A stretch of DNA of 64,000 bases from contig NZ_CP012670.1 of NCBI RefSeq assembly GCF_004135735.1, positions 558,001 through 622,000 of the forward strand, written 5' to 3'. Numbering within the stretch: the stretch's first letter is position 1; each line of letters opens with the position of its first letter. The position numbers were made by a program, and so were the translations under genes. The notes under the pieces were generated by a model, which made no database searches, was not told the DNA's origin, and saw only the letters and a list, made by a program, of their open reading frames with translations. Positions 1,604-64,000 of this stretch are shown here, one piece after another. The stretch comes from Sorangium cellulosum (GTDB lineage: Bacteria; Myxococcota_A; Polyangia; Polyangiales; Polyangiaceae).

Positions 1604-1815
1604 AGAACGTGGACCTCTCTGCCACACCCCCTCACCGCGACGCCGTCGCCCGACGCGACGATCTCCGCGCGCTCGCGCGTGATTCGAAGGGCCAAGGCAA
1701 TGCGATGTCCCAAGCTGCCTCGCCATGTCCTGCTCACTGGATGAGGCCTCCTGACCCGAGGTGCAGGTCAACCGCGCTCACGAGGCTGCCCTGCGTCGGC
1801 GCAGGCCGGCGGCCC

Positions 1816-1956
1816 GGCAGAGACAGCCGTCTTGATGGCGGCGGGGAGGGGGAGAGGCGCGTGGCAGAGACAGCCGCCCTGGTGGCGGCGGGGAGGGGGA
1901 GAGGCGCGCGGCAGAGACAGCCGCCCTGGTGGCGGCGGGGAGGGGAGGGGAGGGGA
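1816..1956. repeat. 47-bp tandem repeat, about three copies
   Basis: Units begin at 1816, 1863 and 1910, each starting GGCAGAGACAGCCG and ending in a polypurine stretch; the third copy runs into extra GGGGA steps. Copies two and three carry a small hairpin (GCCGCC, CTGGT, GGCGGC). The array fills much of the 374-base convergent gap between the DUF1003 gene and the trehalose synthase gene. No other feature is seen in that gap. Confidence 0.85.
1937..1955 (+). other. Four-tract G-quadruplex motif
   Basis: Four GGGG runs separated by single A residues lie 22 bases beyond the stop of the leftward trehalose synthase gene. Short loops of one base are the classic stable quadruplex arrangement. In the treS transcript the same stretch would be a CCCC/U polypyrimidine tract. 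Confidence 0.6.
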
Positions 1957-5367: not shown

Positions 5368-5776
5368 GGCTTCTCCGACGTTTGCACGCTGTCCGCGCGA
5401 TGACGCCGGGCGCAACGAACTCAGCGGTGACGGGCCCCTCGCGGCATGAGCGCGCCGCCCGGGCCGGTGGAGGCCAGGAGGCGAGACACGCTGCGGAGGT
5501 CCACCACGGGGCGCGCACCGCCGTCCCACGCAGCCGACGCGGGCCACGGATATGGCTTAACTACCTGGAAATGCAAGACCGAACGCGGCTCAACCTCGGA
5601 TAGCACGCCCGGCGCGCAGCGCAAAGCGGCGCGGCGGCCCCGGGCGACGCCGCGCCCTGTCAAGTTCGATGCGTGGCGACCTCGGCTCCCACGTCGAACC
5701 TCAGCCGGTGTAAAAGGCCCCGGCACCTCGTGACGTGATCGGGCGAGCTCATGCCCATTGTAAGGAGCGTTCTCTC
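5368..5776. other. Divergent intergenic region
   Basis: This 409-base gap separates the leftward treS start from the rightward lipoprotein start and should hold both promoters. A relatively AT-rich patch around 5545-5580 is the most promoter-like part. I cannot name a specific -35/-10 pair or any gene in it. Confidence 0.35.
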
Positions 5777-12752: not shown

Positions 12753-13106
12753 TCAGCCCTCTTCTTCTTCGGCGTTCCAGGCGGAGAGCGCGGTCATGCC
12801 GATGGCGACGGCGCACCCGCCGCACAGGGCGGGCTCCTCGAACCGGAGCTCGTCGCCGCGCGACCACATGTAGAGGCCGCGCCCCGCGGGCTCTCCGTCG
12901 ATGGCGGAGTCGCACACGTCGCAGCGGAGCTCCGTTGAACCTGAGGCCGCCTGGCGTGCGCGCAGGGCGCTGTCGGCGACAGCATCGGCCGAGATCGAGA
13001 TCGGGTGAGCCAGCATCCGCGTGAGCCGGTGAACCGCATCCGCGGTCCCCTCCGGCGTAGGGCGGGGATCCAGGTTCGCGGTCCCCTTCAGAGCGCCTTC
13101 AAACAC
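12753..13106 (-). CDS. Small CxxC protein, unknown function
   Basis: A 117-residue protein with two Cys pairs, CDVC and CGGC, about 35 residues apart, that could bind zinc as a split ribbon, and an acidic Glu-rich tail. GGAGG lies 5 bases before the GTG at 13106; a GTG two codons upstream (13112) would sit directly against that site. No family is recognised. It is convergent with the Omp85 gene, and the region to 13297 upstream holds no gene. Confidence 0.6.
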   Translation of the reverse strand: MFEGALKGTANLDPRPTPEGTADAVHRLTRMLAHPISISADAVADSALRARQAASGSTELRCDVCDSAIDGEPAGRGLYMWSRGDELRFEEPALCGGCAVAIGMTALSAWNAEEEEG

Positions 13107-32402: not shown

Positions 32403-32826
32403 GGCCGACCGATCGAGGTTGAGGCAGCGGAGGTTGGCCGACCGAGGTTGACCGACCGAGGTTGGGAGGTTGACCGACCGAGGTTGAGGTTGGCCGACCG
32501 AGGTTGAGGTTGACCGCCGAGGTTGAGGTTGGCCGGGCCGAGGTTGACCGACCGAGGTTGACCGACTGAGGTTGACCGACCGGAGGTTGGCCGACCGAGG
32601 TTGACCGACCGAGGTCGACCGGACCGAGGTTGAGGTTGGCCAGGTTGAGGTTGGCCGACCGAGGTTGACCGACCGGGGTTGAGGTTGACCGGGTTGAGGT
32701 TGACCGGACCGAGGTTGGGGTTGGCCAAGGTTGGGGTTGGCCAGGTTGGGGTTGGCCGAGGTTGAGGTTGGCCGACCGAGGTTTCCACCCGTCGAGGTTT
32801 CCACCCGTCGAGGTTTCCACCCGTCG
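32403..32826. repeat. Degenerate GAGGTTGACCGACC repeat array
   Basis: About 25 copies of a 14-base unit and a 6-base sub-unit (GAGGTT or GGGGTT) are intermixed over ~380 bases; the array ends in three exact 16-base units CGAGGTTTCCACCCGT starting at 32777. It fills most of the nrdJ-thiL convergent gap. The remaining 32827-33056 shows no gene. No reading frame is maintained, since neither 14, 6 nor 16 is a multiple keeping one phase. Confidence 0.85.
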
Positions 32827-61725: not shown

Positions 61726-62253
61726 ATGGAGAGATCCCAGAAGGAGGCGGTTGTCGGCTCGGTCCGGCAGAAGTTCGAGCGTATGTCCTCCGCGGTCTTC
61801 CTGGACTTCAAGGGGCTCAACGTCGAGGCGGTCACCAAGCTTCGCGATGAGTTCCGGAAGTCGGGCGTGGAGTACCGGGTCGTGAAGAACACGCTCGTTC
61901 GCCACGCCATCAAGGAGCACCCCTGGGCGAACAACCTCGCCAAGAGCCTCACCGGCATGACCGGGGTCGCCTGGAGCTACGAGGATCCGAGCGCAGCCGC
62001 CAAGGTCGTCAAGGCGTTCCGCAAGGACAACCAGAAGCTCCAGATCAAGGCAGGGCTCATCGAGGGCCAGATCCTCTCCGGGGACGCCGTCGAGACGCAG
62101 CTCGCGACGATGCCCGGCAAGGACGAGCTCCGCGCCATGCTGCTCGCGACGCTCCAGGCGCCGCTCCAGCAGTTCGTGCAGCAGCTCAACGCGCCTCTCC
62201 AGAATTTCGCCTATCTCTTGAAGGCGAAGGAAGACGCTGGCACCTCGGGTTGA
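61726..62253 (+). CDS. rplJ: Ribosomal protein L10
   Basis: A 175-residue L10 that anchors L7/L12 dimers in the stalk. VFLDFKGLNVEAVTKLRDEF, VEYRVVKNTLVRHAI and a C-terminal helix (APLQQFVQQLNAPLQNFAYL) for L7/L12 binding are present. The ribosome-binding site GGAGG lies inside the end of rplA, indicating coupling; the separate L10 leader seen in E. coli is therefore absent. Confidence 0.96.
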   Translation: MERSQKEAVVGSVRQKFERMSSAVFLDFKGLNVEAVTKLRDEFRKSGVEYRVVKNTLVRHAIKEHPWANNLAKSLTGMTGVAWSYEDPSAAAKVVKAFRKDNQKLQIKAGLIEGQILSGDAVETQLATMPGKDELRAMLLATLQAPLQQFVQQLNAPLQNFAYLLKAKEDAGTSG

Positions 62254-62352
62254 GAGCGCGCATTCGTGTCAATTGGGCCTTGCGCCCGTCGGATTTTGGT
62301 TTACATGGCCCCCTCCCCCGGGGCGCGCAGAAGAGTTTGAAGGAGTCTTGCA

Positions 62353-62742
62353 ATGGCTGAGATCACGCGCGAGCAGGTCGTCGATTACCTCTCCAACCTC
62401 CCTGTCATCCAGATCGCCGAGCTCATCAAGGACCTCGAGAACAAGTGGGGCGTCAAGGCTGCGCCCGCGGCCGTTGCGGTCGCGGCGGGCCCTGCTGGCG
62501 GCGCCGCTCCGGCCGAGAAGGCCCCGGAGCAGACCGAGTTCGACGTCGTCCTCGCGAACGCTGGTAGCAACAAGATCGGCGTCATCAAGGCGATCCGCGA
62601 GATCACCGGTCTGGGCCTGAAGGAGGCGAAGGACCTGGTCGAGGCCGCGCCGAAGACCGTCAAGGAGCAGGTTTCCAAGGCGGACGCGGAGGAGATGAAG
62701 AAGAAGCTCGTCGAGGCAGGTGCTACCGTCGAGCTCAAGTAA
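62353..62742 (+). CDS. rplL: Ribosomal protein L7/L12
   Basis: A 129-residue stalk protein that recruits translation GTPases. The N-terminal dimer domain (about 1-35), an Ala/Gly/Pro hinge (36-58, [15 protein letters not shown]) and the C-terminal domain [40 protein letters not shown] are intact. GAAGGAG precedes the ATG. The hinge is slightly longer than usual. Confidence 0.97.
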
Positions 62743-62782
62743 CGATCACCGCTTCCTGTCAGGGAAATCGGGATCCGCTGGA

Positions 62783-62826
62783 GGACGGCGGCAGGGGCGA
62801 TTGTACCTGCCGCGCGTCCCGCTTTT
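62783..62826 (+). terminator. Attenuator-like hairpin after rplL
   Basis: GGACG-GCGGCAGG pairs with CCTGCCGC-G-CGTCC, a 13-bp stem with one bulged base and a 10-base loop, followed by CGCTTTTG. It lies 40 bases after the rplL stop, where many bacteria reduce transcription before rpoBC. Confidence 0.55.
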
Positions 62827-62833
62827 GTCTGAT

Positions 62834-63085
62834 GAGGACCGCGGATGCGGATCCTCGGCCAACGCTGAAGGGGACCGCGAAGGCGGATCCCCGGCCAACG
62901 CTGAAGGGGACCGCGAAGGCGGATCCCCGGCCAACGCTGAAGGGGACCGCGAAGGCGGATCCCCGGCCAACGCTGAAGGGGACCGCGAAGGCGGATCCCC
63001 GGCCAACGCTGAAGGGGACCGCGAAGGCGGATCCCCGGCCAATGCAGAAGAGGACCGCGGGTGCGGGTCCTCGACCAACGCCGGA
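62834..63085 (+). repeat. Seven tandem 36-bp hairpin units between rplL and rpoB
   Basis: Seven head-to-tail 36-base units fill most of the 507-base rplL-rpoB gap. Each contains a hairpin of 5 + 4 pairs with one bulged base (for example GGGGACCGC, loop GAAG, GCGGATCCCC) followed by a 13-base linker near GGCCAACGCTGAA. The first and last units use GAGGA/TCCTC where the five middle ones use GGGGA/TCCCC, so pairing is kept. There are no spacers, so it is not a CRISPR array. Frames open across it are a by-product of the 36-base (12-codon) period. Confidence 0.93.
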
Positions 63086-63249
63086 GCTCAATGGGTCGCT
63101 GCGCGGTCCGCTCTGCCCTCACATCCAGAATATCTCAGGTCCCCACACCCTGGGGACGCTCGCGCGCCTTTGGCGCGTAGCTTCGTGTTCGTTGCTCGGT
63201 TCGAGCCGTGCGCCCGCCCCGCACTGCTCGTGTGAGCCGGAGGAAATCG

Positions 63250-64000
63250 ATGCCGTCGGTCGTCCAATCCAACTTCCGCGTCCGTAAGAACCTGGGTCGC
63301 GTTCGTCGCATCATCGACGTCCCCAACCTGATCGACATCCAGAAGTCAAGCTACGACAAATTCCTCCAGATGAGCGTTCCGCCGAACGAGCGGGAGGAGG
63401 TCGGGCTTCAGGCGGTGTTCCGCTCGGTTTTCCCCATCAAGGACTTCAACGGCACGAGCGAGCTCGTCTTCGTCTCGTACAACCTCGAGCCGCCGAAGTA
63501 CGACGTCGATGAGTGCCGCCAGCGCGGTATGACCTACTCGGCGCCGATCAAGGTCACGAACCAGCTGATGATCTACGACACCCGCGACGGCGGGGAGCGG
63601 ATCGTCCGCGACATCAAGGAGCAGGAGGTCTACTTCGGCGAGCTGCCCCTGATGACCGAGACGGGCACGTTCATCATCAACGGGACCGAGCGCGTCGTCG
63701 TCAGCCAGCTGCACCGTAGCCCCGGCGTGTTCTTCGATCACGACAAGGGCAAGACGCACTCCAGCGGCAAGCTGCTCTACTCCGCCCGGGTCATCCCGTA
63801 CCGTGGCTCGTGGCTCGACTTCGAGTTCGACCCGAAGGACATTATCTACGTTCGCATCGACCGCCGGCGGAAGATGCACGCGACCGTGCTGCTGCGCGCG
63901 CTCGGGTACTCGACGCAGGACCTGCTCAACTACTTCTATTCGACCGAGACCGTGTACCTCGAGAAGGGGGGCAAGTACGCGAAGAGCATCGAGTACGACC
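63250..64000 (+). CDS. rpoB: RNA polymerase beta subunit, N-terminal part (cut by window end)
   Basis: The first 250 residues of Rpo[83 protein letters not shown] are the start of the beta protrusion and lobe. GGAGGA lies seven bases before the ATG at 63250. The gene continues beyond the window; the rifampicin region is not included. Confidence 0.97.

What the first reader, a model, noticed from the sequence alone, without database searches (positions are those of the whole stretch)
62834..63085. Tandem 36-bp units in the rplL-rpoB gap fold into hairpins with compensatory changes
Seven exact-length units each can form the same bulged hairpin. The outer units (first and seventh) have GAGGA/TCCTC while units two to six have GGGGA/TCCCC: both sides of the pair changed together, while loop (GGAT, GAAG, GGGT) and bulge (A or G) vary freely. 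That is the pattern expected if the RNA fold is under selection. The site between ribosomal stalk genes and rpoBC is where other bacteria use attenuation or RNase III processing, so a multi-hairpin RNA there could tune polymerase synthesis, bind a protein or act as a copy-number-variable rheostat. I know of no described element like it.
Basis: partly seen in the sequence, partly recalled or inferred. Interest (0 to 1): 0.78.

Follow-up and report, generated by a model that had tools for sequence, protein, structure and literature searches.

The report
Sorangium 36-bp palindromic dispersed element
The seven little hairpins before the RNA polymerase gene belong to a family of tiny palindromic DNA elements, seen here in the soil bacterium genus Sorangium, that also sit in frame inside a number of ordinary genes, so they look more like resident passengers than a dedicated polymerase switch.

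Summary
In detail: seven 36-bp units (62834-63085) lie in the 507-bp rplL-rpoB gap, each a 23-nt bulged hairpin plus a 13-nt spacer. The interpretation changes once relatives are read. All 6 genomes of the genus (Sorangium) carry 3-7 units here; 0 of 10 gaps read from other genera do. The unit is dispersed in each genus genome (16-30 matches at E<=0.01, lower bounds) and was found in 0 of 57 other-genus genomes of the family (E<=0.001). It lies in intergenic DNA and, in four frames and both orientations, inside ileS, etfA, a mutS-like gene, yceD, acpS, an RND pump and others. At seven positions a relative has the uninterrupted gene; net difference 33, 36 or 39 bp. Compensation is strong across the family (51 of 55 against 25.9 expected) but not above shuffling within the rpoB site (20 units, limited power). 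Best reading: a small mobile palindromic element, REP/RPE/SDR-like in kind, without a Y1 transposase (0 of 6) or conserved GTAG/CGTC tag, tandemly expanded at rplL-rpoB. Co-option for rpoB control is possible but unproven.

The parts
62353..62742 (+). rplL (ribosomal protein L7/L12), upstream gene; stop TAA 62740-62742
   Evidence: sequence read directly; rplL C-terminal pattern matched
62783..62829 (+). GC-rich hairpin (62783-62819) soon after rplL, followed by CGCTTTTGTC; attenuator- or processing-like; not part of the repeat family; a similar hairpin follows rplL in several other genera
   Evidence: fold (-41.8 kcal/mol for 91 nt, 4 of 200 shuffles as good); alignments; the consensus terminator scan did not score it (0 found)
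62834..62869 (+). unit 1 (GAGGA/TCCTC stem, loop GGAT, bulge A) plus 13-nt spacer
62870..63049 (+). units 2-6, five units with identical hairpins (GGGGA/TCCCC stem, loop GAAG, bulge A); spacer of unit 6 differs by two bases
63050..63085 (+). unit 7 (GAGGA/TCCTC, loop GGGT, bulge G); hairpin identical in 5 of 6 genus genomes, one change in the sixth
63250..64000 (+). rpoB, downstream gene (ATG at 63250), cut by the window end
   Evidence: sequence; start pattern
13015..13086 (-). two decayed units of the same family elsewhere in the window
   Evidence: E 6.4e-07 and 9.7e-05; homologous site in G004 (L121)

Best explanation
The array is one resident of a Sorangium family of very small palindromic dispersed elements. 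One unit is 36 bp: a 23-nt hairpin (5-bp and 4-bp stems, 4-nt loop, one unpaired base on the 3' arm) and a 13-nt spacer. Shown: copies lie at many unrelated loci, and at seven positions a relative carries the uninterrupted gene, so pieces of about 36 bp are gained or lost cleanly. Shown: unit number at one site differs between species (1 to 10 at the site upstream of a thiS-family gene). From the consensus: 36 is 12 codons and five of its six frames are free of stops, so insertions inside genes can be tolerated. Inferred: single units insert by an unknown activity (not a detected Y1/RAYT transposase), then expand by slippage, unequal recombination or repeated insertion next to an existing unit; the arms stay complementary because the hairpin is needed for copying or because template switching repairs it. 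At rplL-rpoB the array most likely entered before the six species split and is a tolerated passenger in the rpoB leader, downstream of the older hairpin that follows rplL.
For: Dispersal: model R1 matches in 6 of 6 genus genomes (19, 30, 27, 17, 16, 26 units at E<=0.01; at most 150 candidates scored per genome) and in 0 of 57 other-genus genomes of the family at E<=0.001 (stricter filters). An exact degenerate pattern over the named genome collection gave 21 stretches, 19 in four Sorangium genomes and 2 lone matches elsewhere (the window's own genome may be left out there). Loci: 56 unit clusters in 50 of 51 fetched non-rpoB loci form 30 groups by flank homology (units to E 0.1, so some weak). 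Empty alleles: ileS filled in 1, empty in 5 of 5 others; L130 gene filled in 1, empty in 4 of 4 found; HEAT/WD40 gene position a filled in 2, empty in 4; position b filled in 2, empty in 4; RND pump filled in 1, empty in 3 of 3 found; etfA has two positions, each empty in the other of two genomes; net 33, 36 or 39 bp. Frames: 17 host ORFs use four frames (7, 5, 4, 1), none the same-strand frame that holds TGA in the consensus. Pairing: one best unit per group, pair 7 is C-G in 15 and G-C in 15, 30 of 30 paired against 14.8 shuffled; pair 5 27 of 30 against 20.5; pair 2 27 of 30 against 23.3. Hits were chosen by a structure model, but a pattern blind to pair 7 gives 25 C-G, 26 G-C and 4 unpaired of 55 (25.9 paired expected) with 0 matches for the reversed control. 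Spacing is 36 in 65 of 78 neighbouring pairs. In G005 two units share 40 identical nt, inverted about 390 bp apart, one in etfA and one upstream.
Against: No enzyme is identified and no movement was observed. 5 of the 10 sites put to the composite test gave no clean empty allele: yceD filled in 6 of 6; acpS filled in 5 of 5 found; mutS-like gene filled in 2 of 2 found; L120 met a shorter stretch in one genome that may be a deletion product; the PKS gene gave no clean comparison. Without a species tree each empty allele could in principle be a precise loss. A target-site duplication is only suggestive: two clean sites fit TG[34 bp]TG, the others do not show it. The rpoB array is kept in 6 of 6 species and its last hairpin (98.6% mean identity, 23 nt) is slightly more conserved than its flanks (93.4 and 94.1%), which leaves room for function. 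Four of 55 pattern matches have a broken pair 7.
Confidence: 0.77

Rival explanations
1. Co-opted leader RNA: the array began as an inserted element but its hairpins now tune rpoBC expression (processing, stability, protein binding or spacing), with unit number as a rheostat.
For: Present in 6 of 6 species with 3-7 units; last hairpin has one change in six genomes; the gap folds strongly.
Against: Arrays or units at other sites are equally fixed in quite different settings (yceD coding sequence 6 of 6; upstream of a thiS-family gene 6 of 6); pairing at this site is not above shuffles and mismatches persist (limited power); unit number and sequence differ between species; the ten other-genus gaps read have no units.
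Confidence: 0.2
2. The arm-to-arm changes are made by mutation, not selection: quasipalindrome template switching during replication copies one arm onto the other. (Compatible with the best explanation; it competes only over what keeps the hairpin.)
For: The mechanism is described for E. coli and yeast (PMC7202029, PMC8604942, PMC3820800; only titles and abstract starts seen in the listing); arms match in coding, non-coding, sense and antisense copies alike.
Against: Template switching should also remove the single unpaired base, yet the fitted units have one with its identity free (A 95, G 25, C 19, T 3 of 142; these hits were fitted to a model that has the bulge).
Confidence: 0.35
3. It is a classical REP/REPIN family moved by a RAYT (Y1) transposase.
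For: Same size class (20-40 bp), bulged hairpin, intergenic and intragenic copies, with repair genes and a tRNA synthetase among the hosts as reported for REPs (PMC3733652, section 15 read).
Against: PF01797 found in 0 of 6 genus genomes while 5 of 14 control genomes ring; GTAG/CTAC beside the stem in 0 of 116 units and CGTC-type tags or their complements in 2; head-to-tail tandem arrays, which that paper calls absent or under-represented for GTAG REPs in most genomes.
Confidence: 0.08
4. An array of attenuators or terminators for the rplL-rpoB junction.
For: Position and stable hairpins.
Against: No T-run follows any unit; 0 terminator-like matches in 62000-63400; copies inside ORFs in antisense orientation.
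Confidence: 0.04

Closest known systems
REP / GTAG- and CGTC-tagged palindromic repeats (PMC3733652; passages, first of four parts of section 4, section 15)
   Same: Small, sometimes bulged palindromes, dispersed, subfamilies with complementary stem changes, often intergenic, some inside repair and tRNA-synthetase genes
   Different: No conserved GTAG/CGTC tag, no Y1 gene found in the genus, mainly direct tandem arrays with a 36-bp period
Rickettsia palindromic elements, RPE (Ogata 2000, 2002; known from citing passages in PMC10969869 and PMC2996958; the 2002 paper was not held; the 2000 one was not asked for)
   Same: Palindromes inserted in frame inside unrelated conserved genes
   Different: RPEs are given as about 150 bp; here 36 bp, tandem, four frames used
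Small dispersed repeats (SDR) of cyanobacteria (Elhai 2008; only its citation seen in PMC3116915, paper not held; content recalled)
   Same: Very small dispersed hairpin units (recalled)
   Different: Unrelated lineage; sizes recalled as 21-27 bp; membership not testable here
PARCEL palindromic amphipathic repeat coding sequences (PMC2996958, passages)
   Same: Tandem palindromic repeats that are translated
   Different: 75-nt, 25-residue units carried in whole mobilised ORFs; not insertions into existing genes

Membership tests
REP/REPIN (RAYT-associated) | GTAG or CGTC-type tetranucleotide next to the stem | tested here: not met
   of 116 full-length units, 0 GTAG/CTAC and 2 CGTC-type (or complement) in the four bases beside either end of the stem
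REP/REPIN (RAYT-associated) | Y1 transposase (PF01797) in the genome | tested here: not met
   0 of 6 genus genomes, 5 of 14 controls positive
REP/REPIN (RAYT-associated) | 20-40 bp imperfect palindrome dispersed in the genome | tested here: met
RPE-like coding palindromes | In-frame insertion in conserved genes, shown by uninterrupted relatives | tested here: met
   ileS, etfA, RND pump, L130 gene, HEAT/WD40 gene
RPE-like coding palindromes | Sequence relation to Rickettsia RPE families | not tested
   no RPE sequence was fetched
Described RNA family (Rfam 15) | Covariance match | tested here: not met
   0 matches at E<=1 in 62200-63400
CRISPR array | Repeats separated by unique spacers | tested here: not met
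   the 13-nt spacers are similar between units
Mobile element | Observed transposition or an identified mobilising enzyme | not testable with these tools
   only comparative presence/absence available

The most novel reading that the evidence does not exclude
A 36-bp, codon-sized palindromic element that spreads through Sorangium genomes without any Y1 transposase, by an unknown activity (replication template switching, a reverse transcriptase, or another enzyme in trans), inserts 12-residue peptides into conserved proteins in several frames and then grows tandem arrays, one of which has become part of the rpoB leader.
Probability: 0.4. Interest if true: 0.75.

Novelty: new variant of a known kind. 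Interest (0 to 1): 0.52.

Why it matters
Very small palindromic elements that enter coding genes are known from few lineages (recalled, and as cited in the papers above), and what moves those without a transposase is, to my knowledge, open. Here the element is short, shows empty sites, is exactly 12 codons long, and was found in one genus of large-genome soil bacteria, so insertion, frame tolerance and tandem growth can be studied directly. It also warns against reading covarying hairpins at one locus as a regulatory RNA before asking whether the same hairpin is dispersed.

Tried and rejected
RAYT/IS200-type mobilisation: rejected on PF01797 absence in 6 of 6. IS91-type Y2_Tnp and reverse transcriptases occur in 6 of 6 genus genomes, so they neither support nor exclude a role. 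Rfam: nothing. Promoter/terminator scan: nothing. A 2-bp target duplication TG[34 bp]TG fits two clean sites (L088, L130) but not the others, so it is not claimed. Two lone pattern matches outside Sorangium (L138, L140) read as chance: single, no tandem context. My ad hoc ORF picking probably chose a wrong strand or frame at some loci (for example L090, L091, L094, L097, L131, L132); only 17 ORFs were counted (L087 and L112 are one gene, L088 and L099 are one gene, and the start of L110 was set by me); N-terminal cases (L102, L104, L110, L123) could be untranslated leaders. The site keys were not all independent (L133 repeats etfA, L134 repeats yceD); one search regrouped them and its numbers are used here.

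Full report
Check of the observation. The seven units are in the sequence exactly as described. The gap runs from the rplL stop (62740-62742) to the rpoB start (63250), 507 bp between them. A unit is 23 nt of hairpin (5+4 pairs, 4-nt loop, one unpaired base on the 3' arm) plus 13 nt of spacer. The gap folds more stably than 100 of 100 dinucleotide shuffles. Within the window the compensated change may be a single event, since units 2-6 have identical hairpins.

The same gap in relatives. The window's genome and five others form one genus. All 6 have units in this gap: 7, 5, 4, 3, 3, 3. Ten gaps from other genera (L007-L016, nine of the same family and one of another family of the order; rpoB starts of L011, L012, L015 and L016 had several candidates) have no tandem units; the scan gave one chance-like hairpin in a gap, in L008 (14 of 23 identical to the consensus). 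What several other genera share is a hairpin soon after rplL. In an alignment of 9 genomes (4 of the genus, 5 others) it is predicted as a common fold, with 7 of 16 predicted pairs showing a change on both sides in at least one sequence but a small covariation term (-1.11 kcal/mol); a short T-run follows in Sorangium, G008 and G019. That set is selective: I had aligned 13 sequences first, then left out five that aligned poorly and added L004.

Dispersal. A DNA search with the gap already hit other places in the genus. A covariance model of 28 units (R1) finds units in 6 of 6 genus genomes and in 3 of 60 genomes drawn from the family, the three being of the genus. The window itself holds two decayed units at 13015-13086. 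An exact pattern over the named genome collection hit 21 stretches, 19 of them in four Sorangium genomes. I fetched 51 loci around hits outside rplL-rpoB and ran the model over 57 loci (those 51 and the six rplL-rpoB ones): 142 unit matches at E<=0.1. Fifty of the 51 had a match; their 56 clusters form 30 groups by flank homology (a first grouping of 47 loci gave 27).

Units inside genes. Pfam names hosts as isoleucyl-tRNA-synthetase-like (tRNA-synt_1 and Anticodon_1; called ileS from the sequence), EtfA, an RND pump, a holo-ACP-synthase-family protein, a MutS-like protein, a ferredoxin-like protein, an Asp/Glu racemase, YceD, a sigma-70-family factor and a FAD/halogenase-like protein, a 3,241-residue HEAT/WD40 protein, acetyl-CoA synthetase, glucose-6-phosphate isomerase and MutL; a ThiS-family gene lies just downstream of one intergenic array. 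In 17 host ORFs the unit is read in four frames, in both orientations, and never in the same-strand frame that contains TGA in the consensus. In So0157-2 the acpS C-terminus carries ten 12-residue repeats and a degenerate eleventh, where four other genomes have three or four including the degenerate last one.

Empty sites. I tested ten sites with one composite query (its list of matches was cut) and read the alleles. Clean empty alleles were found at five of ten: ileS (5 of 5 other genomes), the L130 gene (4 of 4 found; in G002 only a piece at a contig end matched), HEAT/WD40 position a (4 empty, 2 filled), position b (4 empty, 2 filled), RND pump (3 of 3 found). Two further positions in etfA are each empty in the other of two genomes. 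Net lengths: L130 and HEAT/WD40 position a 36; position b 39; ileS 36 in four and 39 in one; RND 36 in two and 39 in one; etfA 36 and 33. The other five: yceD is filled in 6 of 6, acpS in 5 of 5 found, the mutS-like gene in 2 of 2 found (two units and one), L120 meets in G003 a shorter palindromic stretch that may be a deletion product, and the PKS gene had no clean comparison (a contig end of G002 also holds a unit).

Hairpin conservation. On the 20 distinct rpoB-site units 92.8% of cells pair, but the variable pairs do not exceed shuffles (pair 1 p 0.10, pair 2 p 0.08, pair 5 p 0.49) and pair 9 is unpaired in 6 of 20. On one best unit per group (30 groups), pair 7 is 15 C-G to 15 G-C with no exception (14.8 expected), pairs 2, 4 and 5 also exceed shuffles (p 0.0025, 0.003, 0 of 2000), and pairs 3, 6, 8 and 9 do not vary enough to tell. 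These units were picked by a structure model, which leans that way; the pattern, blind to pair 7, gives 51 of 55 complementary (25.9 expected) and none for the reversed pattern. The count on the mixed alignment A1 (rpoB and other units) had a covariation score above 500 of 500 shuffles and 4 of 9 pairs with changes on both sides. One search suggests that this signal comes mainly from the other sites, though the rpoB set alone is small. So the hairpin is kept at the level of the family; what keeps it (a copying mechanism, or template-switch repair) is not resolved.

Mechanism. Shown: dispersal, presence/absence, varying tandem number. Inferred: insertion followed by expansion. Against a Y1 transposase: no PF01797 match in 6 of 6 genomes. 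Spread may be partly short-range: etfA has units at three positions in or next to it across three genomes, with an inverted pair sharing 40 identical nt about 390 bp apart in G005, and the HEAT/WD40 gene region has two well-supported positions and a weaker third (L088:7797 with L099:10432). That would fit template switching at forks, but the sample is small and was seen after the fact.

Function at rplL-rpoB. Flanks of the array are 93.4 and 94.1% identical between the six genomes and the last hairpin 98.6%, over only 23 nt, so no claim is made. The array is old at this site, but so are others. I put co-option at 0.2.

Literature. Ten searches of the open-access library listed no paper whose title or abstract start describes such an element in Sorangium; lists were cut where many papers matched, and the single paper holding all three terms (PMC10544341, on a Myxococcus strain) was not read. 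Beyond listings I saw passages and one and a quarter sections of PMC3733652 and passages of PMC2996958, PMC10969869 and PMC3116915. Most subscription papers are not held, so prior description cannot be excluded.

Noticed in passing
window 62783-62829: A strong hairpin soon after rplL followed by CGCTTTTGTC; a similar hairpin follows rplL in several other genera. It is the better candidate for the true rplL-rpoB attenuation or processing element.
   Followed up: partly
L220:2762-4243 (-) and L220:6527-16252 (-): A reverse transcriptase gene (PF00078) lies near a giant HEAT/WD40 gene that carries two unit positions with empty alleles in other species; RT matches lie near the same gene also in G001, G003 and G004.
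   Followed up: partly
L096:4732-4853 (G000:C1:6784731-6784852): A variant array with a 33-bp period and four identical hairpins (stem CGGC/GCCG) between ORFs.
   Followed up: no
L133:5260-5295 (+) and 5685-5720 (-): Two units sharing 40 identical nt, inverted and about 390 bp apart, one inside etfA and one just upstream.
   Followed up: partly
L186 (G004:C1:691000-691900): acpS C-terminus extended by ten 12-residue repeats and a degenerate eleventh encoded by the element.
   Followed up: partly
window 32407-32783: Complex degenerate tandem array of GAGGTTGACCGACC-like units (several periods, 14 to 101), reported by TRF.
   Followed up: no
window 1815-1945: 47-bp tandem repeat, 2.8 copies, 94% matches.
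   Followed up: no
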